From: an uncultured Saprospiraceae bacterium
GTDB taxonomy: Bacteria > Bacteroidota > Bacteroidia > Chitinophagales > Saprospiraceae
NCBI GenBank assembly: GCA_905480605.1
Contig: CAJQRD010000082.1
Location: 1-45,399, forward strand
Reading direction: 5' to 3'
Length of the DNA: 45,399 bases
Shown: piece by piece, positions 230 through 44,118 of the stretch
Layout of the letters: every line of letters starts with the position of its first letter
How positions within the stretch are numbered: position 1 is the first letter of the stretch
Notes under the pieces: model-generated
The model's input: only the letters and a program-made list of their open reading frames with translations
Told to the model about the DNA's origin: nothing
Databases searched by the model: none
Translations under genes and position numbers: made by a program

Positions 230-3200
230 TTAATCTAATTTTATAATTTTCGTTGAGGATATGATTTCTCCGCTCTCAACCAAACGAACAAAATAAACAC
301 CCTCAGGCAAATATGATAAATCAATCCAATCCTGATTCAAGATACTTTTCTGCTCATAAACTCTTTGACCTATTGCATTAAAAATATCGACATCAAACAA
401 TTTGTTGTTATCAGCATTTGCAATACGGACAATGTCAGTAGTTGGGTTTGGAAAAATTGAATATCCTCCTTCAAAAGTATTTGGATTGTATTTCGTCTTA
501 TCATAGAGTTTAATATCATCTAATAGCACCAAGTCTTTATCTTCCGTAAAATCCAATTGCTCGGTTTCATTTTGTGAGAGTGCTAATACGGTAATATTCA
601 ATTCACCTACATAATTTGGTGGAAGTTGCAATTTGTGATTAATCAAAGAACCCTGAGGTTGGCCGCTTATCAAATCACCAGTTCCATCTTCATATTCAAC
701 TTGAATCATGGTGCTGTAATCTTCATTTATCAATTCTACAGTACTTGCCTCATGATCAAACATCATAGCATTAAATTCAAAAATTGGTTCTTCAATTTCA
801 GAAGCATCAACACAATAATCTATCTCAGCCTTGAAAAAATACTCACTAAAGAAGTCTTCCTCCTTTTCACAATTCCTAAAAAAATTATGATCTCTCAATC
901 CAAATATTCCTAGCATCTCATTGTTGCGGTAACTTACTATTGTATCATGCGTATAAAAGTCATTTTTAGAAATAGAATAAGACTTATCAGAATTGATATC
1001 AGAAAATGTCTCTATGTAACCATCAGATATAAAATTGATCGGGACTACTTCTCCAGAGAAAGAATTATTTTCGGCTACAACATCATCTTCATGCCTAACT
1101 TTAACATCAAATGTTTCAATACCATCTGGTACCTCATCATCCGTTGCAAATCTTAATGTCCTCGTACTTGAAGTTATATCGCCTGGTTCAAAATCAAAAA
1201 ACACTCTGATACCTACTGTAAAATCGCCTACATTGGTTTCAACATCAAAAAATATTGAATCTGAAACCAGAATATTTCGACATCCTGTGTTTTTAATGCG
1301 GTATCTAAAAGCATCTAACTCTCCGGGTTCACAAGTATTTCGTTTAAATATTTCAACATTATCCAACAAGATATCTGCACCATTGACGTCTGATGTTCCA
1401 AAAGCACCTCTTGATTCATTTATAAGATCATTAGGAGATGAAGCCATTGCTACATTTATAAAAAATGTACCATTATTAGATATTTCATTGGTCAACTGAG
1501 AACTAAAAGTATGTAATAGGGAGTCACCTACCATCATGTCTTTGTCTAACAATATTGTATCGCTGAAATTATCAATATCATTATTGGAAATAAATTTTGA
1601 AATAAGGTTTATTCCACTAGGTATTGTTTCTCTACCTGTGTTGATCATTATAAAGCTAGGGTATACAACCTCTCCTGGGCAAGCCGCAATGAATTCATAA
1701 TCCAATACCAAATCTAAAGAAAGGCTATTGTCACTGCTTTTTAAACCAACTGCGTTCCATGCTTCCACCACTGATAAATGTTGAGTTGAATTCTCACCAT
1801 ACAAATCTTTAGCTGATTCAACAGCGGCCATTAACGCATCATAGTAGTTTGAATTTTCAGTTAAATATACGCGCTGCATGTTAAAAACAATTTGCATCGC
1901 ATCATCAAAACTGACAGCTGAAATATTATAACTCTCCCCTATTTCATTTATACCTTGTTCACCGTTTACCAATAGATAGAACCAATGATTGAGCACGCCA
2001 CTATTTGAGTGCACTCCTCCATTATCACCTGTTGAAGTCCACCAAAAATCACCTTTATAAAATTTTGCATCATTTCTAACCGTAGGGTCTTCCATTGATC
2101 TGATAACATTAATATCTTCATTTAATCTTATGCGGTCTCCAATCAACCAATTGAAATTTGCATTGTCATAATAATACTCAAGGGCTTTCCCAAAAATATC
2201 TGACATAGACTCATTTAATGCACCAGATTCATTTCTATAAACCAAATCAGATGTATAGTCCGTTAGCCCATGTGCAAATTCATGGCCTACAATATCTAGT
2301 GTTGTTAGAGGTGAATATCTATCACAGTCCCCATTTCCAAATCTAGCTCGAACACCATCCCAATACGCATTGACTAAGAATTTACCACCAGCATGTGCCA
2401 CTGTGATCAATTCTCCTCCCTCGCCATCAATACCACTCCAATCAAAATGGTCATTCATCATGTCATAAAATGATGAAGCACAATAATGCAAATCACCTGC
2501 TACCTCATCTTGGTTTTCATTTTCTAAATCCCAATATTTTGAATTATTTTGATACACATCCAAATCTCCATCTAAGGTAATCACACCATCGCCTCTGCTA
2601 AAATCACGCAAGTAATATTCATCGGACGCCAATGAGTCAATGGTAACATTTTGTTCTCCATAGTATCTAGTCTTCACAACGCCAGGCGAATTGTGCACAT
2701 GGATGTTCGAAAAATGATTTATCAATTTACCTGTATGTGCACTTATAAAGACATTCTCATTAAAAGGAGAATCATCATAACTTACTGCTTCAACATTATA
2801 TGCCAATTGATACTCGCCTGAAAAATCAGGATATGCTGCATCAATAACTTTTAGACCTTTATTGTAGTAGTGCACTTTTATTTCACTCAATTTAAGCCAG
2901 TACCCAAGCTCATTCATTGATTGTTCGAGTTGGCTAGAAATGTGCGTTTTAACTTCATCAAATGACAAGGATGGCGTCGTAGATACACTTACAAAAGGCA
3001 GTAAATTTCCAGACGCCTTTTGAGTTTTATCCCCAAGCAGATGCAGCGTATAATTTCCACCTACAACCTCTAGATCCCTGAAGTATTGCTTATATTTTAC
3101 TGTAGTAAAATTTGATTTGGATTTAAATGACTTTACCTTTCTAAATGAGGTGTATTCACTAATCCCCAATTCAGATTTATAAGTTTCAAAAAACTGACTC

Positions 3201-3334
3201 TTTGATACGTGTTTCGCTGCAACTTCAAATAGCTTATTTTTATTGTATTTGTTAAAATAAGATACTCTATCACCTTGTCCTTTAGACGATAAGCTAAAAA
3301 AAAGAAAACCAAGTATTACAAGTGATCGAAACAT
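230..3334 (-). CDS. Secreted M4 (thermolysin-like) metallopeptidase with T9SS sorting domain
   Basis: This is a secreted zinc endopeptidase of 1034 residues. A signal peptide (1-20) is followed by an FTP/PepSY-like propeptide (about 40-200). The M4 catalytic domain (about 220-530) shows HEFAH at 351-355, the third zinc ligand in NESMSD (E375) and the catalytic histidine in GGVHSNSGV (H442), all matching thermolysin H142/E143/H146, E166 and H231. A long beta-rich region (about 545-940) looks like CARDB/Ig-type adhesive modules. The last 75 or so residues (FPNPTTD, then DIFNAIGQRV, ending in TKIIKLD) are a type A T9SS C-terminal signal, so the protein should cross the outer membrane by T9SS and be released or anchored. 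It stands alone, divergent from the helicase with 223 bp between them. Family assignment is firm; the substrate is unknown. Confidence 0.95.
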   Translation of the reverse strand: MFRSLVILGFLFFSLSSKGQGDRVSYFNKYNKNKLFEVAAKHVSKSQFFETYKSELGISEYTSFRKVKSFKSKSNFTTVKYKQYFRDLEVVGGNYTLHLLGDKTQKASGNLLPFVSVSTTPSLSFDEVKTHISSQLEQSMNELGYWLKLSEIKVHYYNKGLKVIDAAYPDFSGEYQLAYNVEAVSYDDSPFNENVFISAHTGKLINHFSNIHVHNSPGVVKTRYYGEQNVTIDSLASDEYYLRDFSRGDGVITLDGDLDVYQNNSKYWDLENENQDEVAGDLHYCASSFYDMMNDHFDWSGIDGEGGELITVAHAGGKFLVNAYWDGVRARFGNGDCDRYSPLTTLDIVGHEFAHGLTDYTSDLVYRNESGALNESMSDIFGKALEYYYDNANFNWLIGDRIRLNEDINVIRSMEDPTVRNDAKFYKGDFWWTSTGDNGGVHSNSGVLNHWFYLLVNGEQGINEIGESYNISAVSFDDAMQIVFNMQRVYLTENSNYYDALMAAVESAKDLYGENSTQHLSVVEAWNAVGLKSSDNSLSLDLVLDYEFIAACPGEVVYPSFIMINTGRETIPSGINLISKFISNNDIDNFSDTILLDKDMMVGDSLLHTFSSQLTNEISNNGTFFINVAMASSPNDLINESRGAFGTSDVNGADILLDNVEIFKRNTCEPGELDAFRYRIKNTGCRNILVSDSIFFDVETNVGDFTVGIRVFFDFEPGDITSSTRTLRFATDDEVPDGIETFDVKVRHEDDVVAENNSFSGEVVPINFISDGYIETFSDINSDKSYSISKNDFYTHDTIVSYRNNEMLGIFGLRDHNFFRNCEKEEDFFSEYFFKAEIDYCVDASEIEEPIFEFNAMMFDHEASTVELINEDYSTMIQVEYEDGTGDLISGQPQGSLINHKLQLPPNYVGELNITVLALSQNETEQLDFTEDKDLVLLDDIKLYDKTKYNPNTFEGGYSIFPNPTTDIVRIANADNNKLFDVDIFNAIGQRVYEQKSILNQDWIDLSYLPEGVYFVRLVESGEIISSTKIIKLD

Positions 3335-5462: not shown

Positions 5463-5472
5463 GCTTTTCACT

Positions 5473-5599
5473 CACGGAGGTGCACAGAGTATTTTTTCGC
5501 ACGGAGGTACACAGAGTATTCTTCTCACGGAGGTGCACAGAGTATTTCTTCTCACGGAGGGCCGCAGAGTATTCTTCTCACAGAGGTACATAAAGTTAC
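5473..5599. repeat. Five tandem copies of a 26-27 bp repeat (CACGGAGGTGCACAGAGTATT)
   Basis: Copies begin at 5473, 5500, 5526, 5553 and 5579, with periods of 27, 26, 27 and 26. The core is CACGGAGGTGCACAGAGTA followed by a T-rich spacer. The first four are near-identical (the fourth reads GGCCGCAGAG) and the fifth is the most diverged (CACAGAGGTACATAAAG). The array starts 11 bp after the helicase stop. An open frame runs through it only because the repeat lacks stops, and I do not regard that as a gene. CACGGAGG-type arrays occur downstream of genes in many unrelated bacteria and have no agreed function. Confidence 0.85.
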
Positions 5600-5752: not shown

Positions 5753-5789
5753 AAAAATACCCACCATTGCTTTTCAGCTCCGGTGGGTA
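5748..5789 (-). terminator. Rho-independent terminator of the Kazal-like/ECF operon
   Basis: Read on the minus strand, TACCCACC (5789-5782) pairs perfectly with GGTGGGTA (5765-5758) across a 16-base loop and is followed by TTTTATTTT. It sits 36 bp past the stop of the minus-strand Kazal-like gene and plausibly ends the four-gene operon. Confidence 0.65.
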
Positions 5790-5824: not shown

Positions 5825-7738
5825 TCATTGCTTAATAAAGCGTTTTGACAATAACAATTGTTGATTGAATATATTGATCGTATAAATTCCTGCTGTTAGG
5901 TTTGCAACGTCAAATTGTAAACTATTTATTCCTTTCACAAGTTCTGAATACTGTGTGTTTAAAACTTGTCCGTTGAAATTACTTATTGATATTGTTACAT
6001 CAGTGTTTTCAGATAGATCTAAGTCCAATCCTATTTGCTCAACAACAGGATTAGGAAATAATCTGTAACCTGAAACAGTACCTGTAACGTCATCTGCCGC
6101 TTGAAGTTTGAATACCTCAGGTGAAATTATTTCGGTATCATCAGATACTTCTGTGCCGTTAATAATCTCACCACATCCATCTTCAATAACTTCTAGACCT
6201 AAGCAGTCTGCGAAACATTGATTTGGAACTGGGAAAATATTACCAGAACTATCCTGAACACAAACTGGATTAACCTCTTCATCAATACACTCAATACATA
6301 TAAAAGTCATTGTCTCTTCACAATCCACTACATCATCAGAAGTATAACCCGCGCATTCTGCATAACACATATTAGGGAATGGACAAATTACTCCAGTTGC
6401 TGCATCCGTTAAAACACAAACTGGAACATCGGTATCTAAATACTCACATTCACACTCATCCCATACTAGGATCAAAGAATCCAATTCCGAACCATCACCA
6501 AAGCCACCAAAACCGTTGTCAATTGAATCACAATCTATAACAACAAAGTCAGTATATCCCCAACATGTTGCATGACATTCGCTTGGAACCCATGTATCAA
6601 ACGTATTATTTTCACCAAGCAAACCTCCGAGTATTTCTACTAGAGAATCAGGAAGAGTGACAGTAATACAAATTCCAATAGAATCAATTTCATCGCATTC
6701 ACATCCATCATCCCATTCGTCTTCCCATTCGTCTTCCCAGCCATCGAATCCATCATCTATTGAATCACAATCGATAACAGTATAGTCTGTAAATCCATAA
6801 CATATTGCATGACACTCACTTGAAACCCATATTTGGAAGGATGTTTCTTCGCCTAGTCCTGAGAATAAACTATCAGAAAAAGTCACTTCGATACAAATCC
6901 CAAGAGAATCAGTTACTTCACAATCACATCCATCCTCCCACTCATCTTCCCACTCGTCTTCCCACTCGTCATTCCAACCATCATCTATTAAATCACAATC
7001 GATAACAGTATAGTCCGTGAATCCATAACATATTGCATAACATTCACTTGGAACCCATGTATCAAAAGAATTGTTTTCTCCAAATACTCCTCCAAGGATT
7101 TCTACCAATGAATCTGGCAATGTAACCGTTATACAAATACCAATAGAATCTGTTACTTCACAATCACACCCATTATCCCATTCATTATTCCAGTCGTCCT
7201 CCCATTCATCTTCCCAGCCGTCAAATCCATTGTCCAAAGAATCACAGTCAATAATTGTAAAATCAGTAAACCCACAACAAACAGCTATACATTCACTAGG
7301 AACCCATGTTTGAAATGATGGAAATCCTTCAAATAAACTGTCCAATTCAGATCCAACTAAAAGGGAATCTGGAAGTGTAACTTCAATACAGATACCCTCA
7401 TCATTGTCAGGATCTGGACAATCACAATTATCATAATTTGACCATTCATCATTACCATCAAATTCATCATCCCACTCCCACTCAAATCCAATTGAATCGC
7501 AGTCAATTACAACGTAATTGTCAAATCCTAAACAGGCTGCAAAACATTCGTTTGGCAACCACGATTCAAATGTTGCGACTCCAGAGCCTGTAGACAGTGA
7601 ATCCGGAAGAGTCACTTGAATACAGATTCCGATCGAATCTGTTACGGTTTCTTCACAATCACAATTCCATGTTTGCGCTTGTATTGTCATTGTGCTTAAG
7701 CATAAAAAACTTAAGACCGTTAATAAAAATTTCATCAT
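5825..7738 (-). CDS. Secreted seven-module Kazal-like cysteine-rich protein with T9SS sorting domain
   Basis: The protein has 637 residues. A signal peptide (1-22, ending IQAQ) is followed by seven cysteine modules. Modules 1-5 each follow CxC-x(7-9)-C-(25-40 residues)-W(V/L)xxEC-x3-C-G(F/Y)-x(6-8)-DC, with signatures such as SIGICITVTLPDSL and WVPSECYAICYGF. Modules 6 and 7 are shorter and closer to classic Kazal domains (PVC, then PFPNMCYAEC and PVPNQCFADC). Acidic Trp linkers (EDEWEDEWED type) separate modules 1-5. A C-terminal T9SS signal (FPNPVVEQ to KRFIKQ) predicts surface export. It is the last gene of the lipoprotein-sigma-barrel operon, 15 bp after the barrel gene. Kazal domains usually inhibit serine proteases; that role is inferred here, since the reactive-site loop in modules 1-5 is unusually long and variable. 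A calcium- or glycan-binding adhesin is the main alternative. Confidence 0.75.
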   Translation of the reverse strand: MMKFLLTVLSFLCLSTMTIQAQTWNCDCEETVTDSIGICIQVTLPDSLSTGSGVATFESWLPNECFAACLGFDNYVVIDCDSIGFEWEWDDEFDGNDEWSNYDNCDCPDPDNDEGICIEVTLPDSLLVGSELDSLFEGFPSFQTWVPSECIAVCCGFTDFTIIDCDSLDNGFDGWEDEWEDDWNNEWDNGCDCEVTDSIGICITVTLPDSLVEILGGVFGENNSFDTWVPSECYAICYGFTDYTVIDCDLIDDGWNDEWEDEWEDEWEDGCDCEVTDSLGICIEVTFSDSLFSGLGEETSFQIWVSSECHAICYGFTDYTVIDCDSIDDGFDGWEDEWEDEWDDGCECDEIDSIGICITVTLPDSLVEILGGLLGENNTFDTWVPSECHATCWGYTDFVVIDCDSIDNGFGGFGDGSELDSLILVWDECECEYLDTDVPVCVLTDAATGVICPFPNMCYAECAGYTSDDVVDCEETMTFICIECIDEEVNPVCVQDSSGNIFPVPNQCFADCLGLEVIEDGCGEIINGTEVSDDTEIISPEVFKLQAADDVTGTVSGYRLFPNPVVEQIGLDLDLSENTDVTISISNFNGQVLNTQYSELVKGINSLQFDVANLTAGIYTINIFNQQLLLSKRFIKQ

Positions 7739-7753
7739 AATACGTTTTAGAGT

Positions 7754-9268
7754 TTAAATTTTAAATAGTATTCCCAATTTGAAATCAACCGTATCGTACG
7801 TTTGGTTGACTACACCATCAATCGTAAAACTTGATAGTGATTTTCTATAATTAATTCCACCTGAAAGTGAAAAGTTTTTACCTAAATTATAATCCAAATA
7901 CAATCCTGTATCAAAGGCTGTAAAAAGTGAATTTTGGAAACCGTTAATTTCTGCATCCTGAACAAATTTAAGATCACTTCCTATGACATCACCATGATAA
8001 GATTGATAAACATTCAATACCGGTCCAGCTAAAATACTCAAGGAAAAATTATCAAACTTTTGAGAATATCCTATACGAATTGGAACGTTTACAAAGTGGT
8101 GTTCATTATAACTGCTGTAACCCGTTTTCATTAATCGAGTCTGTATTTTTTCTCCTGCTACATATTGTGTCTCACCAGCAAAATTTATAAAGTAAGCAGC
8201 AGAATCACTTGGCACCAACTCTTGAGTAGCAATTCTCTCTTCGAAGTTCAGCACCTCATTTATTCTTTGGTATTCTACACCTATCTCTGTGAATAAATTA
8301 TTATTAAAGTGTATTCTATAGCTTAACTGAGCACCTATACCTTCCAAAGTCTTTTCGGCCTCGTTACGTTGAGCAAACAGTGTATTGTCATTTGACGTAT
8401 TGGTAAGTGCTCTATTCAACAAACTGTAACTCCCGTAAAGTGCTAAAGAAGAGAGCCATTTCATTTTTATAGGGTTGATGATATTATTTGTTTCGGCTAG
8501 AGCATTAAGAATAAAAGAACTTCTTACTGGTGCAGACAAATAAGACATAATACCATCAAGTGGTTTTATAGAGAATACCCTTGCTTGCAAAAATGCCGTA
8601 TTGTGCTTATCAATCATTTGCTCAATTGTAGATTTCCCATTTTCTAAACTAGACTTTTTTAAATCTGCGATTCCCGATTCAACAGATGACGTATTTTTAT
8701 CTTTAGAACTGTTAAGTCCTAAATCGTTTGATACAACATTTTGAGTGTTATTACTATGGTTGTTTTCTTCAACTGCGAACACCTCATTTTGTGTTGTACT
8801 AGAATTTAAAGACATATTTACAATATGTTTATTAGAATTTGCATTAGATTTATTTAGTTGCTTAACAATAAATGCTTGTGTAATACTATTTGCTTTGATG
8901 ACAGATTCTTCTTCAGAGTTCTGATTTATAGAATTTAAAAGATCTGATGTTGTATTCTCAAAAAGTAAAGAATTTCCATCTTTATCTACAGTTGTATTTT
9001 CATCCGTTTTATTGATGCTTCTTTTTTCAATCTCTACAAGAGTATGTGATGCATTGTACGCCTCATTTTTATTCCAAAAGAATATTGAAAGAGCAATCAA
9101 TCCTAAAGTAACAAAACCAGAAAGCCACCAAATTGGCAATAATCTTCTCGGTTCTTTCACTGGTGGCAAATGCTGTTCAATATCTGCCCACATTTCCTCT
9201 TTGTCCCAATCCGAACGGGCAGACTCGAGGTTGTTTTTCATATATTTTTCGAAATCATTACCTAACAT
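7754..9268 (-). CDS. Putative trans-envelope anti-sigma protein: cytosolic segment, one TM helix, linker, C-terminal beta-barrel (locus 1)
   Basis: The protein has 504 residues. Residues 1-42 are charged and carry a FEKYMKNNLE and EMWADIEQHL pattern shared with the locus 2 paralogue. Residues 43-65 are one hydrophobic helix with no signal peptidase site. Residues 70 to about 250 are an Asn/Ser/Thr-rich low-complexity linker. About 265-504 alternate amphipathic strands (for example YRIHFNNNLFTEIGVEYQR), and the chain ends KLGILFKI, as in PorT/OMP_b-brl-type outer-membrane barrels. The start codon ATG overlaps the sigma stop by 7 bp, implying translational coupling. Its position directly after an ECF sigma factor suggests that the N terminus binds sigma. 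There is no HxxxCxxC zinc anti-sigma motif and no FecR-like domain. The barrel could instead remain periplasmic as a beta-domain. Architecture is seen; anti-sigma function is inferred. Confidence 0.75.
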   Translation of the reverse strand: MLGNDFEKYMKNNLESARSDWDKEEMWADIEQHLPPVKEPRRLLPIWWLSGFVTLGLIALSIFFWNKNEAYNASHTLVEIEKRSINKTDENTTVDKDGNSLLFENTTSDLLNSINQNSEEESVIKANSITQAFIVKQLNKSNANSNKHIVNMSLNSSTTQNEVFAVEENNHSNNTQNVVSNDLGLNSSKDKNTSSVESGIADLKKSSLENGKSTIEQMIDKHNTAFLQARVFSIKPLDGIMSYLSAPVRSSFILNALAETNNIINPIKMKWLSSLALYGSYSLLNRALTNTSNDNTLFAQRNEAEKTLEGIGAQLSYRIHFNNNLFTEIGVEYQRINEVLNFEERIATQELVPSDSAAYFINFAGETQYVAGEKIQTRLMKTGYSSYNEHHFVNVPIRIGYSQKFDNFSLSILAGPVLNVYQSYHGDVIGSDLKFVQDAEINGFQNSLFTAFDTGLYLDYNLGKNFSLSGGINYRKSLSSFTIDGVVNQTYDTVDFKLGILFKI

Positions 9269-9828
9269 AATTCCGCAGTTTTTTGGTCATTTAATAAGTC
9301 GCGTAACATACGCTTGGCTCTTGTCAATTGAGAACGAGAAGTACTTTCTGAAATATTTAAAGCAGCCGCAATTTCTCTATGACTGTAACCTTCCACAACA
9401 CTCATATTAAAAACTATACGATAACCATCAGGAAGTAATTTCATTAACTTCATCACATCTTCAGCCTGCAGTCTTGCAATTACCTCAGGAGTACTTAATT
9501 CCTCAAATTGTTGATTTCCTATTTGTTCTCTTTCTGCCAATCGCTTATTTTTTCGTAAAAGTTGTAGTGCTTCGTTAATTACAATTTTCGTTAGCCAACT
9601 GTTAAGGTTGCCTTTCTCTGAATCAAAATTTTCTAATTTTTTAAAAATCTTGATATATGCATTCTGTAGAATATCTTTTGCATCACTTATATCTTTAGTA
9701 TATCGCCTGCTCACATTCATGAGTCTTTCAGCAGTTAACATATAGAACTGCTTTTGACTTTCTCGGTCATTATTTATGCAATTTTGTATTAATTTATCTA
9801 TATCCAAATCAGTATATATCCTACTCAA
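9262..9828 (-). CDS. ECF-type RNA polymerase sigma factor (locus 1)
   Basis: This is a 188-residue sigma-70 family factor with only regions 2 and 4. Region 2 contains DAKDILQNAYIKIFK and the FDSEKGNLNSWLTKI segment; region 4 is a helix-turn-helix with LPDGYRIVFNMSVVEGYSHREIA-type sequence and the recognition helix SESTSRSQLTRAK. The nominal start is TTG at 9828, inside the last codons of the upstream lipoprotein gene (8-bp overlap). No ATG is available before residue 29, so coupling to the lipoprotein gene is likely. The stop overlaps the start of the barrel gene. It presumably directs transcription of its own operon and perhaps other envelope genes (inference). It is clearly homologous to the sigma gene at 30976-31542, sharing the LPDGYR and GYSHREIA segments. 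Confidence 0.93.
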   Translation of the reverse strand: MSRIYTDLDIDKLIQNCINNDRESQKQFYMLTAERLMNVSRRYTKDISDAKDILQNAYIKIFKKLENFDSEKGNLNSWLTKIVINEALQLLRKNKRLAEREQIGNQQFEELSTPEVIARLQAEDVMKLMKLLPDGYRIVFNMSVVEGYSHREIAAALNISESTSRSQLTRAKRMLRDLLNDQKTAELC

Positions 9829-11152
9829 TAATAATTGGTGAATTAATTTCCATAGAAACTTCCAAAGAACTCAAACCTGTAATGTCAGTAATTGTAGCAC
9901 TTAATGAAGCATTCATTTCTCCAAAAAATGAGGAACTTCCATTTTCTTCTATTGAGTAAGTAACAAATGCAGGTATTCCTGGATCTAATGAATAAAGGAC
10001 TCCATTAATTCCAACAGTTAAGTCCTCAATGATTGAACTGTTAGAATTCTCATCAAAAAATGATAGTGAAAATATATTGCTATCAAATTCTTGTGAAATT
10101 GGAAATATTAAAACCTGACCTGAATATGACTGCTTAATTGCTAGCACATCAAGCGCTAACACTGATTGACCATTGTTATAGGTTAATTCTGCAGTGCCAG
10201 TTTCAAATAAAATATTATTGCATTCTAGGTTTATTTGATAAAATATATCACTTCCATCAAAAACACCTGCATATACGAGGTAGTTAAACTCATCATATAT
10301 TTGGAAATTGATATATTCAAAATCACAACCTTCAAAATCAAAATCAAATTGCCCATTTTCAATCTCAACTTGAATTACATTACCATCATTTGACCAAAAC
10401 TCTAGAGTCCCACTTTCAAGAACTGTACTGTCACAAACTGTAACAATACCTGAAACTGATTCATTACTCATCGATTCTTCCGATTGAAAATTAATTTCTG
10501 TATTAGAGTCATAAGGACCAAGCAAATTTATTTCATCAAACAATGGGCAGCCTGATGTTTGATATATCTGTAAAAGTACTTCCATGTTTTTTGGTATCAA
10601 CGCAGCGTAATTACCATTTTTAATAGCACTTTGATAAAAGAAATTTCCATCTTCAGTTATGATAAAAATATTTGAATTAACAGGGTTGCCTTCTACGTTT
10701 GTAATTTCCCCATACAAAATAATATAATTAGGATCTAAAAGGTCTATGGGTTGCCCAGTTGGAGATACTGAAGTGCCTAAAAAGAGATCAATTTCAACAT
10801 CTTCATTGTCAAAATGGTCTTCAGAAATAAAAGCTATCGATGCATAGTAAGAATCTTTAAGTACAAATATCTTATAAACATCTTCTTCTAAAACATCTAT
10901 AAAATCAAATTCTCCAAAACTATTGGTATTGGTTTCAGCAATCAATTCTGTTTCGTTGTATAGTTTCACAATTGCAGAGCTTAGCAACTCACCATTGTTT
11001 CCTTTTACAATACCATTGATGTCTCCAACTTCTACTTCTTTAGAAGGTGGGATTGTAATTTCATCAGGTATTGAATTGTCCACCATATCTTCCCTTGAAC
11101 AAGATCCAAGAAAGAAAGACAAACCAATTATGTAGATTAATAAATGCCGCAT
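9821..11152 (-). CDS. Lipoprotein with carboxypeptidase-regulatory-like domain, first gene of ECF operon 1
   Basis: The protein has 443 residues. A lipoprotein signal peptide with lipobox LGSC places the lipid-modified cysteine at about residue 18. Next comes a polar stretch and a CarboxypepD_reg-like domain at about 42-130 (GDINGIVKGNNGELLSSAIV, then TNSFGEFDF), followed by further beta-sandwich-like segments (about 140-430) with two similar starts (YGEITNVEGNPV and VSGIVTVCDS). It is exposed on the periplasmic or outer leaflet side. It overlaps the sigma gene by 8 bp. The larger lipoprotein at 27102-30953 begins the same way (lipobox, then GNITGLVFDENNSPVENAVI) and also precedes an ECF sigma gene, so I infer it is a surface component or ligand-facing partner of this signalling operon. 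The specific ligand is unknown. Confidence 0.8.
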   Translation of the reverse strand: MRHLLIYIIGLSFFLGSCSREDMVDNSIPDEITIPPSKEVEVGDINGIVKGNNGELLSSAIVKLYNETELIAETNTNSFGEFDFIDVLEEDVYKIFVLKDSYYASIAFISEDHFDNEDVEIDLFLGTSVSPTGQPIDLLDPNYIILYGEITNVEGNPVNSNIFIITEDGNFFYQSAIKNGNYAALIPKNMEVLLQIYQTSGCPLFDEINLLGPYDSNTEINFQSEESMSNESVSGIVTVCDSTVLESGTLEFWSNDGNVIQVEIENGQFDFDFEGCDFEYINFQIYDEFNYLVYAGVFDGSDIFYQINLECNNILFETGTAELTYNNGQSVLALDVLAIKQSYSGQVLIFPISQEFDSNIFSLSFFDENSNSSIIEDLTVGINGVLYSLDPGIPAFVTYSIEENGSSSFFGEMNASLSATITDITGLSSLEVSMEINSPIIIE

Positions 11153-11174
11153 GTTTTATGCTGTTTGTATGGTA

Positions 11175-11203
11175 TATGCAGCTGATTTGAAAAATGCTGC
11201 ATA
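11175..11203 (-). promoter_or_regulatory. Perfect 8-bp inverted repeat upstream of ECF operon 1
   Basis: TATGCAGC (11175-11182) and GCTGCATA (11196-11203) form a perfect inverted repeat with a 13-base spacer, 23 bp upstream of the lipoprotein start codon. It is placed like an operator or a 5' leader hairpin that could mask the translation start. Nothing similar precedes operon 2, so binding by the sigma factor itself is not supported. Confidence 0.4.
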
Positions 11204-11330: not shown

Positions 11331-11396
11331 TTAAGCGTTTATAAACGTTTAAAAAGGACATGGCATGTCTTTTAGACATGCCATGTCCTTTTTAAA
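11331..11396. repeat. Palindromic repeat element, copy 1 (23-bp stem)
   Basis: AGGACATGGCATGTCT and its complement lie within a perfect 20-bp inverted repeat (11351-11370 with 11374-11393, loop TTT) that extends by three more A/T pairs to 23 bp. It is preceded by the small palindrome TAAACGTTTA. The same 31-base left half recurs at 21331-21360. It lies about 75 bp past the stop of the minus-strand GNAT gene and has A/T runs at both stem ends, so this copy could also work as a bidirectional terminator. Apart from this and the inverted repeat at 11175, the 318-bp gap 11153-11470 shows nothing. Confidence 0.85.
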
Positions 11397-11958: not shown

Positions 11959-13539
11959 CTAAATTTTAATAATTTTTCTTAATATAGATTTTGCACCCAT
12001 AGATATTTTTATATAATAAATCCCTTCTTCAAAATGATTGATATCAATTGTCTTTTGAATACTGTTATCGATATTTTCTGATTTCAACAATTGCCCTAAA
12101 TTATTGAAGATCGAAATCTGATATAATCGGTTATCATTGAGATTTGAAAAATAAATTCTATCAAGAACAAGGTTTGGATTAATGGCAACTCTTGATATAT
12201 CAACTACAGATCTAACTACTTCAATTTCTGAACTTATTGAATTTCCATTTTCAAGTTGTGCCATAATTAGATAATAACTTACAATTTCATTTTCCTTATC
12301 TAAATATGAGCAATTGTAAATACTATTATTCCAATCACAATTATTTATACTTTGCAAAATATAAAACTCACCTAAGGTACTTGCTTTCTTAATTGTAAAT
12401 GAATTGGCTGGAATATCAGACTCTAACTCCCATCTTAGAATGTTTCCATCAACTGTATTTTCAACAATTAATTTCAAAATTGATGGAATTGACAAAATAG
12501 ATTCCTCATCGCAAGGTGATGACAAAAGCGATGTCCTTACATTAAAAACAGAAGCTCGCATCATACCACGTTGACCTGCAGTAAATAAATTCATACATTG
12601 GTCATTGCTGTAGTCCATATAATTCATGAACATGACACCACTGCCGTTTGTTGTACAATTATCTAACAACGGAAAGGATGGACAACCACTACTTTCTTCA
12701 AACTGAATTGGCGTATCGATGATACCGTCATCTTGACCGCAACCTCCATTTCCCCCACCCCAAACATGATTCAAATTGAGCCAATGGCCTACTTCATGCG
12801 TGCAGGTTCTACCCAAGTAATTTGGAAATAATGGATTGGCCATTGACAATGAACCAATAGTATAAAAAGAAACTACAGCTGCGTCTGTATTGGCATTACC
12901 ACCAGGAAATTGAGCATAACCCAAGGTGCTAAAAAAATTACAAACACCATTATTTAATTCATCAATTCCTATGACTGAAAATATATTCAAATAAGAGTCT
13001 CGTTCCCAGATCAAAGGTGTCACAATATTGGCATCAATATAACCCGGTGTCCAGCAATCAGATTCATTTACGTTTGGAAGATTATTTATGTGTGTTCTTA
13101 TAATTCCAGATGTTGCATTGCCTGTCGGAGCAACTTGTGCCAAGCAAAATTGAATTTGTGTATTTGCTGCCAAAGGAACAAATGCATCAGGAGTATCTGT
13201 TGCATCAGAATTCATTCTTGAAAAATCATCATTCAATTGTTGAAGTTGTGCTAAAATTAAATCTTCAGAAATGTTTTCTTGAACGCCTAGCGCATCACCA
13301 TTGTGTATGATTTGAAAAACAACAGGAATGATAATAATGTCACCATCTTGATCTTTATTATTGACTGATAAGTAAGAATTAATCTCATTCTGTAACTTAT
13401 CAAATGACAACTTAAAGCTTGGATCACTATTGAGTTTTTGTTCATGGTGATGGTGAGCAGCACAAGATTTTTGTTCCTGAGCGTTAGTACGAACTACTAT
13501 CCATATACAACACAATATTAAACAATAGACTCGCTTCAT
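11959..13539 (-). CDS. Secreted M43 (cytophagalysin/pappalysin-like) metallopeptidase with T9SS sorting domain
   Basis: This is a 526-residue secreted zinc metzincin. A signal peptide (1-20, ending RTNA) is followed by a His-rich stretch (AAHHHHEQ) and a propeptide-like segment. The extended zinc site HEVGHWLNLNH (248-258) gives the HExxHxxGxxH-like triad, except that the usual Gly is replaced (WLNLNH), as is common in M43. The Met-turn is MNYMDYS (about 305-311), and cysteines in GCGQDDGIIDTP and the following loops fit family disulfides. The tail from about 450 (VINPNLVLDRIYFSN-type, then SIFNNLGQLL, ending RKIIKI) is a T9SS signal. It lies in a tight operon between the thioesterase gene (3-bp gap) and the GNAT gene (2-bp gap). 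It is likely active outside the cell on protein substrates. Confidence 0.92.
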   Translation of the reverse strand: MKRVYCLILCCIWIVVRTNAQEQKSCAAHHHHEQKLNSDPSFKLSFDKLQNEINSYLSVNNKDQDGDIIIIPVVFQIIHNGDALGVQENISEDLILAQLQQLNDDFSRMNSDATDTPDAFVPLAANTQIQFCLAQVAPTGNATSGIIRTHINNLPNVNESDCWTPGYIDANIVTPLIWERDSYLNIFSVIGIDELNNGVCNFFSTLGYAQFPGGNANTDAAVVSFYTIGSLSMANPLFPNYLGRTCTHEVGHWLNLNHVWGGGNGGCGQDDGIIDTPIQFEESSGCPSFPLLDNCTTNGSGVMFMNYMDYSNDQCMNLFTAGQRGMMRASVFNVRTSLLSSPCDEESILSIPSILKLIVENTVDGNILRWELESDIPANSFTIKKASTLGEFYILQSINNCDWNNSIYNCSYLDKENEIVSYYLIMAQLENGNSISSEIEVVRSVVDISRVAINPNLVLDRIYFSNLNDNRLYQISIFNNLGQLLKSENIDNSIQKTIDINHFEEGIYYIKISMGAKSILRKIIKI

Positions 13540-27101: not shown

Positions 27102-30100
27102 ATGAAAAATTTACCATTATTTATACTATTCTTTGTTGCGTTGCTATTTGTTGGCTGTGAAAAGGATATTATTGGCGAAGCTGAAGACCCAACAATAATC
27201 AGAACTGACCCAACCGAATTAAAACTGGGTAACATAACAGGTTTGGTCTTTGACGAAAACAACTCGCCAGTAGAAAACGCTGTCATTGAGTATAGCAGAG
27301 AAATATATACAACTGATGTCAATGGTTATTTTAGAATAAAAGACACAGGTGCTTCTGCTGCTGGTGGCTTGGTAAAAATAAACAAGGATGGTTATTTTAA
27401 GAGTTTCAAATTTGCATTTATTGAAACACAACAAACTTCACATCTTAGAATTCAGCTTATTGAAAAAAATGATGCCCAGTCTCTAAATGGAACAAACGGT
27501 GGAATCATTTCAGTAAACGGAGGTGGAAAGATTACTTTCCCAGAAAGATCATTGGTTGATGAAAATAATGTCAGCTATGAAGGTGAAGCAACAATATATA
27601 CGCATTGGTATAACCCTAGTGATGACAACCTTAATGCTTCAATGCCAGGGGATCTTAGAGGTGTAAGCAATGACGAAAAATTGGTACAACTTTCTACATT
27701 TGGAATGATGGCTGTAGAAATATTTTCACAGAGCGGTCAAAAACTAAACTTAGCAAATGGCATTACAGCTGCGATTGAATTTCCTCTACCTCAGTCATTG
27801 GCAAACAATGCTCCAGAAGAAATTCCTACTTGGTCTCTTGATGAACAAACAGGTGTTTGGATCGAAGAATCAACTGCATCTCTTAACAATGGCAACTACA
27901 TAGCTGAAGTGTCACATTTTTCATTCTGGAACTGTGATATACCTGCCAATCTGATTAAACTGAAAGGAAAAGTTGTAAATGTAGATGGCAGACCTTTGCC
28001 TTGGTATCAAATTCTTATTACAGTTAAAAATTCAGGTGTATGTAGAGGTGGATATACTAACAGCAATGGTGTCTTCTGTGGTTATGTTCCTAAAAACACA
28101 ACCCTTATAATTCAAGTTAAAGATGAGTGTGGAGGCGTAATTTATGAAGAAGAAATTGGGCCATATGGTGTTGATACAGATTTAGGTGAACTGGAAGTGG
28201 GCAATTCTACAGAAGGACAGACTTTGATAAGTGGAAGCTTACGTTGCGATGGACAACCCATTCCAAATGGCTATGCAAAAATCACCTTAACTAATGGTTT
28301 GATTTATATCGCGGAAACAGATGAAGCAGGAAGATATTCAATAGTAATTGAAGGTTGTGGATTAACTCAAGTTACAGTTCAAGGAATTGACATTGAAAAC
28401 AACAGGACATCTGGAATAGTAACATTAAACTTAAATAGCAATGATAATGAAGTAGAAATTATTCCGTTTGAAGTATGTCAAGAATTAGATGAATTTATTA
28501 GATGGAAAATTAGTGGCGGTGATGAAGAATTATTTATTGACCCATCAGCTAAAATTATTGACGGGAACCTTGAAATAGTTGCCCAATTACCAATTAATAT
28601 TGTTCATACTTCAATAATCATTACGGCTCCTAACGTAGTACTAGGTGATAATAATATTGATGAGATAATTTCTACTATTGTGAATGGAGGAAATACACAA
28701 TGGGCTGGATGTGGTAAAGATCAATTGGTAAATTGCGAAAATGTAACGATTAACTTAATAACATTAGGTGGGCTTGGAGAATTCATAGAAGGTACATTCA
28801 TGGGTGAAATTGCCAACGCCGATGGTCTTCCTGAAACAATAATGGGTAGTTTTAGAATCATGGTTGACTTTGTTGCAGAGTCCAATGCTGTTAGTGGCGT
28901 TGTGTGGGCTGATGACAATGAAGATGGCATTAGACAAAATGGAGAGGCACCTCTAGCAAATGTGCAAATTACCATGAGAGGGGGTTCGCAAGATACATTA
29001 TTAACTACACTTACGAATAATGAAGGTGAATATTCATTTGACAGAATTTTTCAAGTAGTGGTTTCGCTTGAAGTTGGTTTAGAACCAGGATTCCAAGTTT
29101 CAATTGCGAATCAAGGTACAGATGACGCAATAGATTCAGATTTTGAAAGCAATCCACAACCTATTACATTTACACCAGGTGATAAACTAGAAAACTACGA
29201 TGCCGGAATTCATACGGATGGAGAATTGATTTGCGAAGTTGAAGTTGTAGAATTTCCTACATGTCCGGGTAATAATCCATTTGCCATAGTTGGTGTGACA
29301 ATAGATAGAGGTACTGCACCCTATACAATTACATTTAATGGCGACGTGGTTGAAAATACAAATTTGACATCTCTAGAAATTGGTGATGTTCAAATTGGTG
29401 GACTCTATAATTACACAATAACAGATGCTTCAGGTAACAGTTGCAATGGAGAATTTGATTTAGAATTCATTGATGCTTTTGCCTGTGAAGCACGAGGTAC
29501 AAATTCTTCGGGAGGACTAAACAATGGCTCAGCTACAGTCATTGCTTTTACAGATGAGATAGAGACAGCAGAATGGTCAAATGGAGCAACAGGTACTTCT
29601 ATTTTTGAACTTTCACCTGGAACATATAGCGTAACTGTAACAAGTCCTAACGGCTGTACTTCAGAATGCGATACAGTTATTGAAGAAGATGATTTGTCTT
29701 GTGAAATTATTGGACCTGATGTTGCTTGTGAAGCTGGATTTCAATATGACTTAATTGTAGAAACAAATCAATCCGATGTTACATATTTATGGAGTACTTC
29801 CTCAACTGATCAATTTATTGTACCCACAATAAATGCAACTTCAACTTATAGTGTAACTGTTACGGCCGCAAACGGAACATCTACCACGTGTGAAAAGACC
29901 ATTGAATTATCTAGTGGAATAGTTTGTACAATCGATGATATTACTATTGGATGCAGCCAAAACGATCAAATTACAGTTAATGCTACAGGTGGAACACCTC
30001 CTTACAATTACTCATGGATAACAGGAGATGGTGCCCCATCTATTACAGTTTTTCAAGAAGGAACGTATTCCGTTACAGTTACAGATGCCAACGGCTGCTT

Positions 30101-30953
30101 GAGTACTTGCACAGGAATTGTAGAATCTGATGAGGGCATATCATGTGTTATTTCCACAACTGTTGGTAATTGTGGAACTGATGAAAGTTCAGCAAGTGTT
30201 GAAGTCTCAAATGGTTCTGGTGATTTTTCTTATCAATGGTCAAATGGAGCTGATACTCAAGAGATTTTAAACCTTGTTACTGGCAATTACACCGTAACTG
30301 TTACAGATAACGATACTGGATGTACTACAATTTGCGAAACACAAGTTGCTGGAAGTATTCCTGTAGGTATACAAATTGTATTTGAACAGAATTGTGATGA
30401 CCCAGAATATTTTACATCCATGGTAGCTCTTGCAACGGGAGGAAGTGGAATTTATACATACTCATGGAGTAATGGAAGTTCTGAAATAGAAACAAATATT
30501 GAGACATTGGGACTATTTAGTGTAACTGTAACAGATAGTCAAGGATGTACTGCAGTGGCAGAATTAGATGTAGTACCGTCAGCTTCTAGAATTGGTGATT
30601 TTGTATGGATTGATGATGAAATGGGAGAAGCAGAAGTTTATGATCCAAATATTGATTTAGGTGTTGCAAACGTGAGCCTTCTGTTATACAGTTCAGACAT
30701 AAATGGTTTATTAACAGTAGTCGATTCTACATTTACAGATGTTGAAGGATTTTATGAATTTGATAATATTCCTCTAGGAGATTATGTAGTGTCTATAGAT
30801 GTGCCTGCCAACATGATATTGGTACAACCAAACTCTTCACAAGATATTGATTTAGATAGTAACTTTGATCAAGGTACTGCACTAAGCGAAGTCATTACGG
30901 TTAATGGTTGTGAGTCTAATTATTCTATAGATGCAGGATTAAAGAAAAACTAA
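27102..30953 (+). CDS. Large surface lipoprotein with CarboxypepD_reg-like, SprB-like and SdrD-B-like modules, first gene of ECF operon 2
   Basis: The protein has 1283 residues. A lipoprotein signal with lipobox FVGC puts the lipidated Cys at about residue 19. Modules in order: a carboxypeptidase-regulatory-like domain (about 45-120); a ZU5-like/FAM171-like beta-sandwich (about 130-290, ending EVSHFSFWNCD); two further regulatory-like domains (about 295-450); an SdrD-B-like domain (about 597-700, VVWADDNEDGIRQNGE); about six SprB-like/PKD-like repeats of about 75 residues (about 706-1160, with TYSVTVT and NGC signatures); and a final SdrD-B-like domain (DFVWIDDEMGEAE, about 1165-1283). It has no T9SS tail, so it should be membrane-tethered by lipid. 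It is 22 bp upstream of the ECF sigma gene. SprB-like repeats usually mediate adhesion; its role as the surface input of this signalling operon is inference from the parallel with locus 1. Confidence 0.85.
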   Translation: MKNLPLFILFFVALLFVGCEKDIIGEAEDPTIIRTDPTELKLGNITGLVFDENNSPVENAVIEYSREIYTTDVNGYFRIKDTGASAAGGLVKINKDGYFKSFKFAFIETQQTSHLRIQLIEKNDAQSLNGTNGGIISVNGGGKITFPERSLVDENNVSYEGEATIYTHWYNPSDDNLNASMPGDLRGVSNDEKLVQLSTFGMMAVEIFSQSGQKLNLANGITAAIEFPLPQSLANNAPEEIPTWSLDEQTGVWIEESTASLNNGNYIAEVSHFSFWNCDIPANLIKLKGKVVNVDGRPLPWYQILITVKNSGVCRGGYTNSNGVFCGYVPKNTTLIIQVKDECGGVIYEEEIGPYGVDTDLGELEVGNSTEGQTLISGSLRCDGQPIPNGYAKITLTNGLIYIAETDEAGRYSIVIEGCGLTQVTVQGIDIENNRTSGIVTLNLNSNDNEVEIIPFEVCQELDEFIRWKISGGDEELFIDPSAKIIDGNLEIVAQLPINIVHTSIIITAPNVVLGDNNIDEIISTIVNGGNTQWAGCGKDQLVNCENVTINLITLGGLGEFIEGTFMGEIANADGLPETIMGSFRIMVDFVAESNAVSGVVWADDNEDGIRQNGEAPLANVQITMRGGSQDTLLTTLTNNEGEYSFDRIFQVVVSLEVGLEPGFQVSIANQGTDDAIDSDFESNPQPITFTPGDKLENYDAGIHTDGELICEVEVVEFPTCPGNNPFAIVGVTIDRGTAPYTITFNGDVVENTNLTSLEIGDVQIGGLYNYTITDASGNSCNGEFDLEFIDAFACEARGTNSSGGLNNGSATVIAFTDEIETAEWSNGATGTSIFELSPGTYSVTVTSPNGCTSECDTVIEEDDLSCEIIGPDVACEAGFQYDLIVETNQSDVTYLWSTSSTDQFIVPTINATSTYSVTVTAANGTSTTCEKTIELSSGIVCTIDDITIGCSQNDQITVNATGGTPPYNYSWITGDGAPSITVFQEGTYSVTVTDANGCLSTCTGIVESDEGISCVISTTVGNCGTDESSASVEVSNGSGDFSYQWSNGADTQEILNLVTGNYTVTVTDNDTGCTTICETQVAGSIPVGIQIVFEQNCDDPEYFTSMVALATGGSGIYTYSWSNGSSEIETNIETLGLFSVTVTDSQGCTAVAELDVVPSASRIGDFVWIDDEMGEAEVYDPNIDLGVANVSLLLYSSDINGLLTVVDSTFTDVEGFYEFDNIPLGDYVVSIDVPANMILVQPNSSQDIDLDSNFDQGTALSEVITVNGCESNYSIDAGLKKN

Positions 30954-30975
30954 AAAGACATGATTTAAAAACTTA

Positions 30976-31542
30976 ATGCCAAACCACTTAACCATAGAAG
31001 ACATTGTTACAGGTTGCCTAAAAGGGCATTCCAATTGCCAACGCGAATTGGTGAATAGATATTCTGCAACATTGTATTCTGTATGTTTGAGATATATGGC
31101 AAATGAGTCAAAAGCAAAAGATGTTTTGCAAGAGACATTCATCCGTGTTTTTAAATCAATAAAAAGCTTTGATATTAATAAAGGAGCATTGCCAAGTTGG
31201 ATGCGAAAAATTGCAGTGAACCAATGTCTTAAAGCGATAGATAAAGAGAAAATTAAGTTTACATCATTAAGTGTAGATTATAATAATACTGTTAGCGTCG
31301 AACCTTCTGCCATCCATAACATGGAGGCGGAGGATTTGATGAAGGTTATACAAACGTTGCCTGATGGCTACAGACAGGTTTTTAACCTGTCTGTAATTGA
31401 TGGTTATAGTCACCGAGAGATTGCAGAAAAACTGGGCATTCAAGAAGTGTCTTCTAGATCAAATCTCTCAAGGGCAAAAAACATATTGAAGAATAAATTG
31501 ATGGCTTTAAAAAAGACCGGATCATGGATAAAGATTATATAG
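30976..31542 (+). CDS. ECF-type RNA polymerase sigma factor (locus 2)
   Basis: This is a 188-residue sigma factor with region 2 (AKDVLQETFIRVFKSIKSFD) and region 4 (LPDGYRQVFNLSVIDGYSHR, then EVSSRSNLSRAKN). It has the same length as the locus 1 sigma and shares the LMK, LPDGYR and GYSHREIA segments, so the two are close paralogues. It starts at ATG 30976, and its 3' end overlaps the barrel gene by 19 bp. It probably activates this operon and other envelope genes in response to a surface signal (inference). Confidence 0.94.
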   Translation: MPNHLTIEDIVTGCLKGHSNCQRELVNRYSATLYSVCLRYMANESKAKDVLQETFIRVFKSIKSFDINKGALPSWMRKIAVNQCLKAIDKEKIKFTSLSVDYNNTVSVEPSAIHNMEAEDLMKVIQTLPDGYRQVFNLSVIDGYSHREIAEKLGIQEVSSRSNLSRAKNILKNKLMALKKTGSWIKII

Positions 31543-37116: not shown

Positions 37117-37287
37117 AGTTTAAAAAATAATCCCAACATTGTCATTTACGATACACAAAACTCATGTGAACCCATAACGCTACTTCCTGATTCTCAAATT
37201 GAAAATTGCCAACTCTCCTATAAGGGTCGATATTTAACTTATCGCAATAAGCCCTACAAAAAGGAAGTCTTCCACAGTATATTTGAT

Positions 37288-39703: not shown

Positions 39704-39714
<11 letters not shown>
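37288..39714 (+). CDS. Gene A fragment: second propeller part, Ig-like domain and caspase (C14) domain
   Basis: The frame is open from 37117; the first start-like codon is a TTG at 37288 inside a conserved blade (FDLENKKWIY), so independent initiation is unlikely. Domains: WD40-like blades, a signature segment GGEWLTYTPQGYFEGSKKGR, an Ig-like domain (VSLFINDKEIVENI, nt about 38170-38450), a basic stretch SSRRRRGTSS, then the caspase domain (from KKPGLYGLFVGTS, nt 38540). The catalytic dyad is intact: His in FSGHG (nt 38818-38820) and Cys in DACHSG (nt 38983-38985). A C-terminal module (about 39380-39714) resembles the beta-alpha domain also seen in gene B (GFYEPTGSNIIATW). The family cleaves after basic or acidic residues; specificity here is unknown. 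Confidence 0.8.
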
Positions 39715-39769
<55 letters not shown>

Positions 39770-39916
39770 AAATAATCAAGTTCTTATATAGTGGTTGATG
39801 AAAATTAATAAAGTTACTATATGTTATTAAAACACTCAACCAGACAAATACAGAAAAAGTATCAATAAAGCACTAACACATTTTTAGTAAATTAGTATTA
39901 TAATAATTTTACAATA

Positions 39917-43051: not shown

Positions 43052-43231
43052 GATCCATCACGTATCAATTTAATTGAGCTAACAACTGAATCTACAGATC
43101 CAAAAAAACAATCATCAAAAACAAATATTCTAAAAGCTTTTAATGACATTGCTAAAGAAGCAAAACCCAATGACATTATCGTTTTATTTTTCTCTGGTCA
43201 TGGCCTGACAATATCTGAAGATTTTTACTAC

Positions 43232-44077: not shown

Positions 44078-44118
44078 AGGATTGACAATAAAAATCTCCT
44101 TATAGTAAAACTACAATA

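What the first reader, a model, noticed from the sequence alone, without database searches (positions are those of the whole stretch)
5825..11152. Four-gene lipoprotein / ECF sigma / one-piece anti-sigma barrel / secreted Kazal-like operon
Four minus-strand genes with 8-bp and 7-bp overlaps and a 15-bp gap, ending in a terminator, join a surface lipoprotein, an ECF sigma factor, a single-TM protein with a C-terminal barrel and a T9SS-exported cysteine-rich protein. This looks like a complete surface-sensing circuit whose output includes a secreted putative protease inhibitor. I know of no named system with this gene set; novelty is inferred, not searched.
Basis: partly seen in the sequence, partly recalled or inferred. 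Interest (0 to 1): 0.72.

Follow-up and report, generated by a model that had tools for sequence, protein, structure and literature searches.

The report
Surface-sensing operon with Kazal-like output
A four-gene bacterial operon, found in the same order in six related genomes, appears to let the cell sense its outer surface through one protein that crosses both membranes and to respond by exporting a chain of protease-inhibitor-like modules; the switch is a known type, the export product is a new partner for it.

Summary
The four genes are real: surface-type lipoprotein, ECF sigma, protein with one inner-membrane helix, disordered tether and 8-strand barrel, and a Cys-rich T9SS-exported protein. 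The 8-bp lipoprotein/sigma overlap is probably a start-codon artefact; the 7-bp sigma/barrel overlap recurs in all six operons. The pair has the anatomy of published Das/Dma and EcfO/Reo systems: a known kind of switch. The four-gene order occurs in 5 other genomes of the family (Saprospiraceae), but in only 2 of 14 genomes of its genus. New: (1) all six share a promoter-like motif before the lipoprotein; a looser form lies at 37 of 126 other such operon starts (controls 1-3), suggesting autoregulation. (2) The exported protein is seven Kazal-like modules; the family profile hits Kazal inhibitors in the PDB. It has no Lys/Arg before its tail and no basic P1, so trypsin-type inhibition is unlikely. 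(3) A second Das/Dma lineage also adjoins Kazal-like genes. Sensing, sigma binding and inhibition are inferred.

The parts
11173..11201 (-). Candidate ECF promoter: -35-like TGCAGCATTTT (11201-11191), 12-nt spacer, -10-like CATATA (11178-11173); 20 nt before the lipoprotein ATG
   Evidence: Equivalent motif with the same spacing before the lipoprotein gene in all six operons, one of them with 2 mismatches; only exact match to the pattern in own genome; intergenic
9821..11152 (-). Lipoprotein of 443 aa; lipobox Cys18 followed by SRED (LES-like), beta-sandwich domains, first one CarboxypepD_reg-like (below the Pfam cut-off)
   Evidence: LES rule from PMC5080379 (passages)
9262..9807 (-). ECF sigma factor (Das-type); probable start TTG at 9807 (longest frame starts 9828)
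   Evidence: Sigma70_r2 and r4_2; homolog starts
7754..9268 (-). Dma-type one-piece anti-sigma: N-terminal helices 4-16 and 23-33, TM helix 46-68, disordered 68-267, 8-strand barrel 272-503
5825..7738 (-). Exported protein: signal-peptide-like start, seven Kazal-like modules, acidic W/D/E linkers, T9SS type A sorting domain (560-634)
6173..6298 (-). Kazal-like module 7 (residues 481-522)
6320..6454 (-). Kazal-like module 6 (residues 429-473)
6530..7663 (-). Five extended Kazal-like modules 1-5 (residues 26-403) with acidic W/D/E linkers
5758..5789 (-). Terminator-like hairpin after the last gene
11348..11396 (-). Strong hairpin (-36.2 kcal/mol, z -10.2) between the acetyltransferase gene and the operon

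Best explanation
A self-contained, autoregulated Das/Dma-type surface-signalling operon. Shown by sequence or model: gene order, one transcriptional direction, barrel/tether/TM anatomy, conserved promoter-like motif, T9SS export signal, Kazal-like modules. Inferred: the N-terminal helices of the membrane-spanning protein hold the sigma factor at the inner membrane; a change at the outer surface (a ligand on the barrel loops, or loading/unloading of the co-encoded surface lipoprotein) is passed down the disordered tether or causes its cleavage; sigma is freed and transcribes its own operon from the TGCAGCATTTT-N12-CATATA promoter; the response is more lipoprotein, more sigma/anti-sigma and a secreted or surface-anchored string of acidic, Lys/Arg-free Kazal-like modules that binds or blocks something outside the cell, most likely a protease that is not trypsin-like, or a matrix component.
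For: Four-gene order in own genome and in all 5 other genomes with sigma E <= 1e-57, each with the 7-bp sigma/barrel overlap; sigmas one clade, SH-aLRT 96. AF2 model: helices, TM, disordered region, 8-strand barrel; Foldseek finds outer-membrane barrels (best E: omptin Pla; also Ail, OmpX, NspA, OmpA). 123 of 133 proteins directly downstream of related sigmas match one profile of this kind, 51 of which built it. Promoter-like motif before all six operons; looser motif at 37 of 126 other operon starts against 1 reversed, 3 reverse complement, 2.35 shuffled. In G231 a second exact motif lies before the Kazal-like gene. Own genome has no other exact match. The module profile hits Kazal inhibitors, best E 1.8e-6. 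Published pairs of this anatomy behave so: deleting dma2 raises das2 and downstream genes; the EcfO-type sigma gene rises 33-fold on exposure to an antibacterial toxin.
Against: No experiment. Sigma binding, topology, signal and promoter use are untested. The barrel protein itself has no Pfam or NCBIfam match. The operon is patchy: 12 of 14 genomes of the genus lack the sigma at E <= 1e-42, some of them incomplete. The motif pattern was written from the six sites, so their matches are partly by construction; G338's site has 2 mismatches, and G135, without the sigma ortholog, has 3 exact matches (one intergenic). Before the Kazal-like genes of L131 and L130 the best match has 3 and 4 mismatches, and 3-7 before the others that could be scored, except G231. 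Next to Das/Dma the Kazal-like modules were seen in only 6 of 19 genomes. Two of the five other operons end at a contig edge inside the Kazal-like gene.
Confidence: 0.72

Rival explanations
1. The first three genes are a Das/Dma circuit whose real targets are elsewhere (envelope or vesicle genes); the Kazal-like gene is a hitch-hiker or a structural surface protein with no role in the response.
For: In 13 of the 19 genomes with Kazal-like modules none was seen next to Das/Dma (three of the 13 at a contig edge); none of 37 other Das/Dma loci of the family (L081-L099, L184-L201) has one; deletion of dma2 in Bacteroides also changes distant PUL genes.
Against: Same four-gene order in six genomes of three genera; a second Das/Dma lineage is also linked to Kazal-like genes in other gene orders, and one clade for all eight sigmas is disfavoured, p-AU 0.026; in own genome no other exact motif match, and of four with one mismatch three lie inside genes.
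Confidence: 0.17
2. The Kazal-like chain is not an inhibitor but an acidic, disulfide-rich surface coat or adhesive; the Kazal fold is used as a stable building block. (Compatible with the circuit itself.)
For: No Lys/Arg in 520 residues before the tail, 132 Asp/Glu, 22 Trp; P1 Glu or Asp in 57 of 139 modules; acidic W/D/E linkers; other secreted repeat proteins of the family are also poor in Lys/Arg.
Against: The profile hits Kazal inhibitors in the PDB; some modules have Phe, Ile, Leu or Tyr at P1, which could suit chymotrypsin-, elastase- or subtilisin-like enzymes.
Confidence: 0.4
3. The pair is an ordinary FecI/FecR-like system with a separate outer-membrane receptor.
For: ECF sigma followed by a single-TM protein; one paralogous locus has a gene downstream that looks from its start like a TonB-dependent receptor (L035; not domain-scanned).
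Against: The anti-sigma carries its own 8-strand barrel; no receptor gene in the operon; sigma is below the TIGR02985 cut-off, 86.6 against 126.4 bits.
Confidence: 0.04

Closest known systems
[quoted passage not shown] PMC13088901: abstract, introduction, discussion and passages read; the PNAS 2024 original was not held)
   Same: N-terminal anti-sigma region, TM helix, long disordered tether, C-terminal barrel; ECF sigma next to it; further genes in the operon
   Different: Here a LES-type lipoprotein precedes sigma and a T9SS Kazal-like protein follows; the dma2 operon is described as das2, dma2 and BT_1557 (DUF4943). No sequence comparison with Dma1-3 was possible
EcfO/Reo of Phocaeicola vulgatus (PMC9308784 and PMC13114119, passages read) and, as cited there, Bacteroides fragilis
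   Same: Sigma plus an anti-sigma that spans cytoplasm to surface; proposed to sense outer-membrane stress; sigma gene induced on exposure to a toxin
   Different: Output there is NigD genes and longer O-antigen; no Kazal-like protein in the passages read
Leech-derived tryptase inhibitor (non-classical Kazal; PDB 2kmo, 1an1; alignment)
   Same: Six-Cys order with one residue between C1 and C2, PVC at C3, N-x-C-x-A-x-C-x-G around C4-C5
   Different: C3-C4 spacing 14-32 here against 10; no basic P1; seven modules in tandem; bacterial, T9SS-exported

Membership tests
Dma family (dual membrane-spanning anti-sigma) | Single transmembrane helix near the N-terminus | tested here: met
   TM 46-64 by hydropathy, helix 46-68 in the model
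Dma family (dual membrane-spanning anti-sigma) | Long disordered tether | tested here: met
   Residues 68-255 and 257-267 pLDDT < 50
Dma family (dual membrane-spanning anti-sigma) | C-terminal outer-membrane beta-barrel | tested here: met
   8 strands 272-503; Foldseek to outer-membrane barrels, Pla first by E-value, NspA best by target TM-score of those listed (0.70)
Dma family (dual membrane-spanning anti-sigma) | N-terminal domain that binds the cognate sigma | not testable with these tools
   Two helices 4-16, 23-33, pLDDT 59-73 by block; W27 nearly invariant in 26 rows; binding untested
Dma family (dual membrane-spanning anti-sigma) | Adjacent sigma of group ECF21 | tested here: inconclusive
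   ECF sigma adjacent; no ECF21 model on hand
Dma family (dual membrane-spanning anti-sigma) | Sequence homology to Dma1-3 or Reo | not tested
   Their sequences were not held; relatives in Bacteroidales MAGs (e.g. L229, L268) match the same profile
Kazal-type inhibitor | Six-Cys Kazal spacing | tested here: inconclusive
   C1-x1/2-C2-x8..10-C3 and C4-x3-C5-x9..10-C6 fit (module 2 has one extra Cys after C5, module 6 one inside the C3-C4 loop); C3-C4 is 14-32, longer than 10 in the leech inhibitor
Kazal-type inhibitor | Detected by a Kazal profile | tested here: inconclusive
   Window modules 3, 6, 7 alone: no Pfam hit; of 45 family modules 15 hit Kazal_2 and 8 Kazal_1 at E <= 1, best 7.9e-5 and 3.9e-4; family profile finds Kazal structures, best 1.8e-6
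Kazal-type inhibitor | Protease inhibition | not testable with these tools
   P1 never Lys/Arg in 139 modules
T9SS type A cargo | C-terminal sorting domain above cut-off | tested here: met
   PF18962 42.5 bits (cut-off 27), TIGR04183 37.6 (cut-off 23)
FecI/FecR-type signalling | TIGR02985 sigma and separate TonB receptor in the operon | tested here: not met
   86.6 bits against 126.4; no receptor gene in the operon

The most novel reading that the evidence does not exclude
A protease-response circuit: the long tether or barrel loops are cut or perturbed by proteases outside the cell, sigma is freed, and the cell exports Lys/Arg-free Kazal-like chains that cannot be cut at basic residues and that inhibit or absorb the attacking (Glu- or hydrophobic-specific) proteases, a bacterial negative feedback on proteolytic attack. 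Kazal-like output has been recruited by two Das/Dma lineages.
Probability: 0.12. Interest if true: 0.8.

Novelty: new variant of a known kind. Interest (0 to 1): 0.52.

Why it matters
It extends the recently described membrane-spanning anti-sigma switches to a gene set with a defined, exported output, so what such a switch is for becomes testable with one protein. The shared promoter-like motif, if it works, would let targets of this class be predicted across Bacteroidota. Kazal-like T9SS cargo was not found in print in the open-licence library: no paper with Kazal and Saprospir-; one with Kazal and type IX secretion, off the point by the start of its abstract; 46 with Kazal, Bacteroidetes and bacterial, of which I saw titles and abstract starts of 12 only, none on the point.

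Tried and rejected
Rejected: (a) operon private to this genome: five other genomes have it. (b) 8-bp lipoprotein/sigma overlap as evidence of coupling: probably a start-codon artefact. (c) Trypsin-type inhibitor: no basic P1 in 139 modules. (d) Wide regulon in own genome: of the four other sites with one mismatch three lie inside genes and one 246 nt before a Cys-rich gene (one search had not turned the minus-strand loci). Sites with two mismatches in own genome were not placed against genes. (e) The neighbouring M43 protease as a conserved partner: a similar-looking gene stands before the operon in the same-genus genome L182 (judged by start and position, not scanned) and none was noticed among the neighbours printed for the other four.

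Led nowhere: sigma-70 promoter scan (26 found, 27.4 expected); order-wide sigma search (6 of 298 genomes, all of the same family); PDB sequence search with the barrel protein.

Limits: the pattern was loosened, so its 37 of 126 is partly fitted; with the pattern as first written 29 of 177 upstream regions (the six operons and duplicates included) had at most 3 mismatches against 2 of 177 reversed. Gene calls in fetched loci come from my own longest-ORF script. In one search the match list was cut; 19 of 199 genomes with Kazal-like modules is my count from the printed rows, a lower bound. In one search the script counted 40 of 56 family loci with an upstream lipoprotein; one of these (L137) is the Kazal-like gene, so I report 39.
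Full report
Observation. The sigma/barrel overlap (7 bp) and the 15-bp gap are right; the 8-bp overlap of lipoprotein and sigma depends on the first TTG of the frame. Homologous sigmas start MEINKLI, MEIDKLI, MELIKLL, MEIIRLI, MEILKLI (my script's calls; TTG in four, GTG in one), which aligns with an in-frame TTG at 9807. The operon is bounded by a hairpin after the last gene (-22.4 kcal/mol, z -3.5) and a strong hairpin upstream (-36.2, z -10.2).

Proteins. The sigma factor has regions 2 and 4.2. The barrel protein has no Pfam or NCBIfam hit; with an alignment of 26 rows AlphaFold2 gives two short N-terminal helices, a TM helix 46-68, a disordered stretch 68-267 and an 8-strand barrel 272-503 at pLDDT 65-97 by ten-residue block. 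Foldseek finds outer-membrane barrels: by E-value the 10-strand omptin Pla first, then Ail; also OmpX, NspA (target TM-score 0.70) and OmpA (strand number of Pla recalled). 12 of the 26 rows hit OMP_b-brl_2 at E <= 0.1. The lipoprotein has Cys18 followed by SRED; the export rule of PMC5080379 (passages read) is a polar or basic residue followed by acidic ones. Its N-terminal domain is CarboxypepD_reg-like, below the Pfam cut-off (21.6 against 32.3 bits); the model is moderate (mean pLDDT 57.5) with pilin-like and other beta-sandwich matches of low TM-score. The last protein has a signal-peptide-like start, a T9SS tail above cut-off, and seven six-Cys modules; 2000 shuffles of its first 545 residues gave a mean of 0.14 modules and a maximum of 2, with a pattern written after looking at the protein. 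A profile of 45 modules found 20 PDB sequences at E <= 10, best leech-derived tryptase inhibitor, E 1.8e-6; 7 of the 20 are named Kazal in the listing, 12 of the others are Kazal-type by my recall, and I am unsure of the last, 2n17. That profile covers short modules only; the five extended window modules are tied to it by the alignment. Before its tail the window protein has 0 Lys/Arg and 132 Asp/Glu in 520 residues; of the 23 Kazal-like proteins examined (some cut by contig ends) 12 have none, 6 have one and 5 have 2 to 30. P1, placed by the Kazal rule from recall (second residue after C2), was Glu or Asp in 57 of 139 modules and never Lys/Arg.

Conservation. In 398 genomes of the family 34 hold a sigma at E <= 1e-42; six, own included, stand apart at E <= 1e-57, the next being 1.1e-47. 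All six have lipoprotein, sigma, barrel protein, Kazal-like gene in that order and strand, with the same 7-bp sigma/barrel overlap: own, L182 (same genus), L080, L130, L131, L183. They belong to three genera; in the own genus 2 of 14 genomes have the sigma, so the operon is patchy. L080 and L182 end at a contig edge inside the last gene. The six sigmas form one clade (SH-aLRT 96 in 70 rows). Two further genomes have Kazal-like genes with Das/Dma pairs in other orders (L133: sigma, barrel, lipoprotein, Kazal-like; L137: Kazal-like, sigma, barrel, lipoprotein; the barrel protein of L137 did not itself match P0003 at E <= 0.01 there but is not among the misses of the profile). Their sigmas form another clade (94 by my check of the tree), and one clade for all eight is disfavoured (p-AU 0.026, 8 rows against 51). 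Against a strict link: 19 of 199 genomes show Kazal-like modules in the printed rows; 6 of the 19 have them next to Das/Dma and in 13 none was seen there, three of these at a contig edge; and none of 37 other Das/Dma loci of the family (L081-L099, L184-L201) has a Kazal-like gene. Three family contigs share sequence with records named Saprospiraceae.

The wider class. The barrel protein matches something at E <= 1e-4 in 113 of 199 family genomes. Own genome has 27 sigma matches; of the 13 whose surroundings I printed, 9 are followed by a protein of the barrel-protein profile. In all loci gathered, 123 of 133 proteins directly downstream match that profile at E < 1e-3, of which 51 built it and a few are duplicates. 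A lipoprotein of more than 200 aa lies upstream within 600 nt in 39 of 56 family loci and 9 of 64 loci of named Bacteroidota (corrected by one). So lipoprotein, sigma, membrane-spanning anti-sigma is the usual cassette of this family, less so of the phylum. The window holds a second one, 27102-33101.

Promoter. Upstream of all six operons is TGCA[GA]C[GA]TTTT, 12 nt, [CA]ATAT[AT], in G338 with 2 mismatches. In own genome the operon site is the only exact match; with up to 2 mismatches there are 42 sites against 23 for the reversed pattern. In G231 a second exact match lies 63 nt before the Kazal-like gene, while before the Kazal-like genes of L131 and L130 the best match has 3 and 4 mismatches, and 3-7 before the others that could be scored. 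A looser pattern is found with at most 3 mismatches at 37 of 126 other sigma-operon starts, against 1 reversed, 3 reverse complement and 2.35 on average in mononucleotide shuffles, with many at 40-50 nt from the start codon. Caveats: the looser pattern was fitted; G135, which lacks the sigma ortholog, has 3 exact matches to the strict one, two of them inside genes; and the six operons are related, so they are not six independent observations.

Mechanism and place among known systems. The Dma2 paper (PMC13088901; abstract, introduction, discussion and passages read) describes the family by anti-sigma region, TM helix, tether and barrel next to an ECF21 sigma, and reports strong induction of das2 and neighbouring genes on deletion of dma2. 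Papers on EcfO/Reo (PMC9308784, PMC13114119; passages read) describe the same kind of pair as a likely sensor of outer-membrane stress, its sigma gene induced by an antibacterial toxin. The present pair meets the anatomical features tested; sigma binding, ECF21 class and sequence kinship to Dma1-3 were not tested. I take it as a Das/Dma-like circuit of a new variant: LES-type lipoprotein in front, Kazal-like T9SS cargo behind, candidate promoter of its own. Searches that showed no earlier description of the gene set, by listings and passages only: in an open-licence library; the original Dma paper (PNAS 2024), the EcfO paper and the ECF classification paper were not held.

Noticed in passing
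window 27102-33101 (+): A second cassette of the same kind: 1283-aa lipoprotein with CarboxypepD_reg, SdrD_B and SprB domains, ECF sigma, TM/barrel protein; no Kazal-like gene.
   Followed up: partly
window 35641-45399 (+): Row of large genes; 37288-39714 and 43232-44077 have caspase (C14) domains, 39917-43051 a weak beta-propeller match; the last two may be one interrupted gene. Described only.
   Followed up: no
window 11348-11396: Inverted repeat of 23 bp per arm between the acetyltransferase and the operon.
   Followed up: partly
window 5471-5587: Tandem repeat of 27/53 bp in the gap after the convergent AAA-domain helicase-like gene.
   Followed up: no
window 5825-7738, linkers between modules: Linkers of acidic residues and Trp (WEDEWEDEW here, WDNDWDNDWDND in L182) with 12-bp DNA repeats; possible cation binding, unexplained.
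   Followed up: no
window 11959-13539 and 230-3334 (-): T9SS metalloproteases on either side of the operon: M43 and M4.
   Followed up: partly
L036 (own genome, contig C93): Another lipoprotein, sigma, TM/barrel cassette followed by a 1652-aa secreted-looking protein, so exported cargo downstream of such pairs may be general.
   Followed up: no
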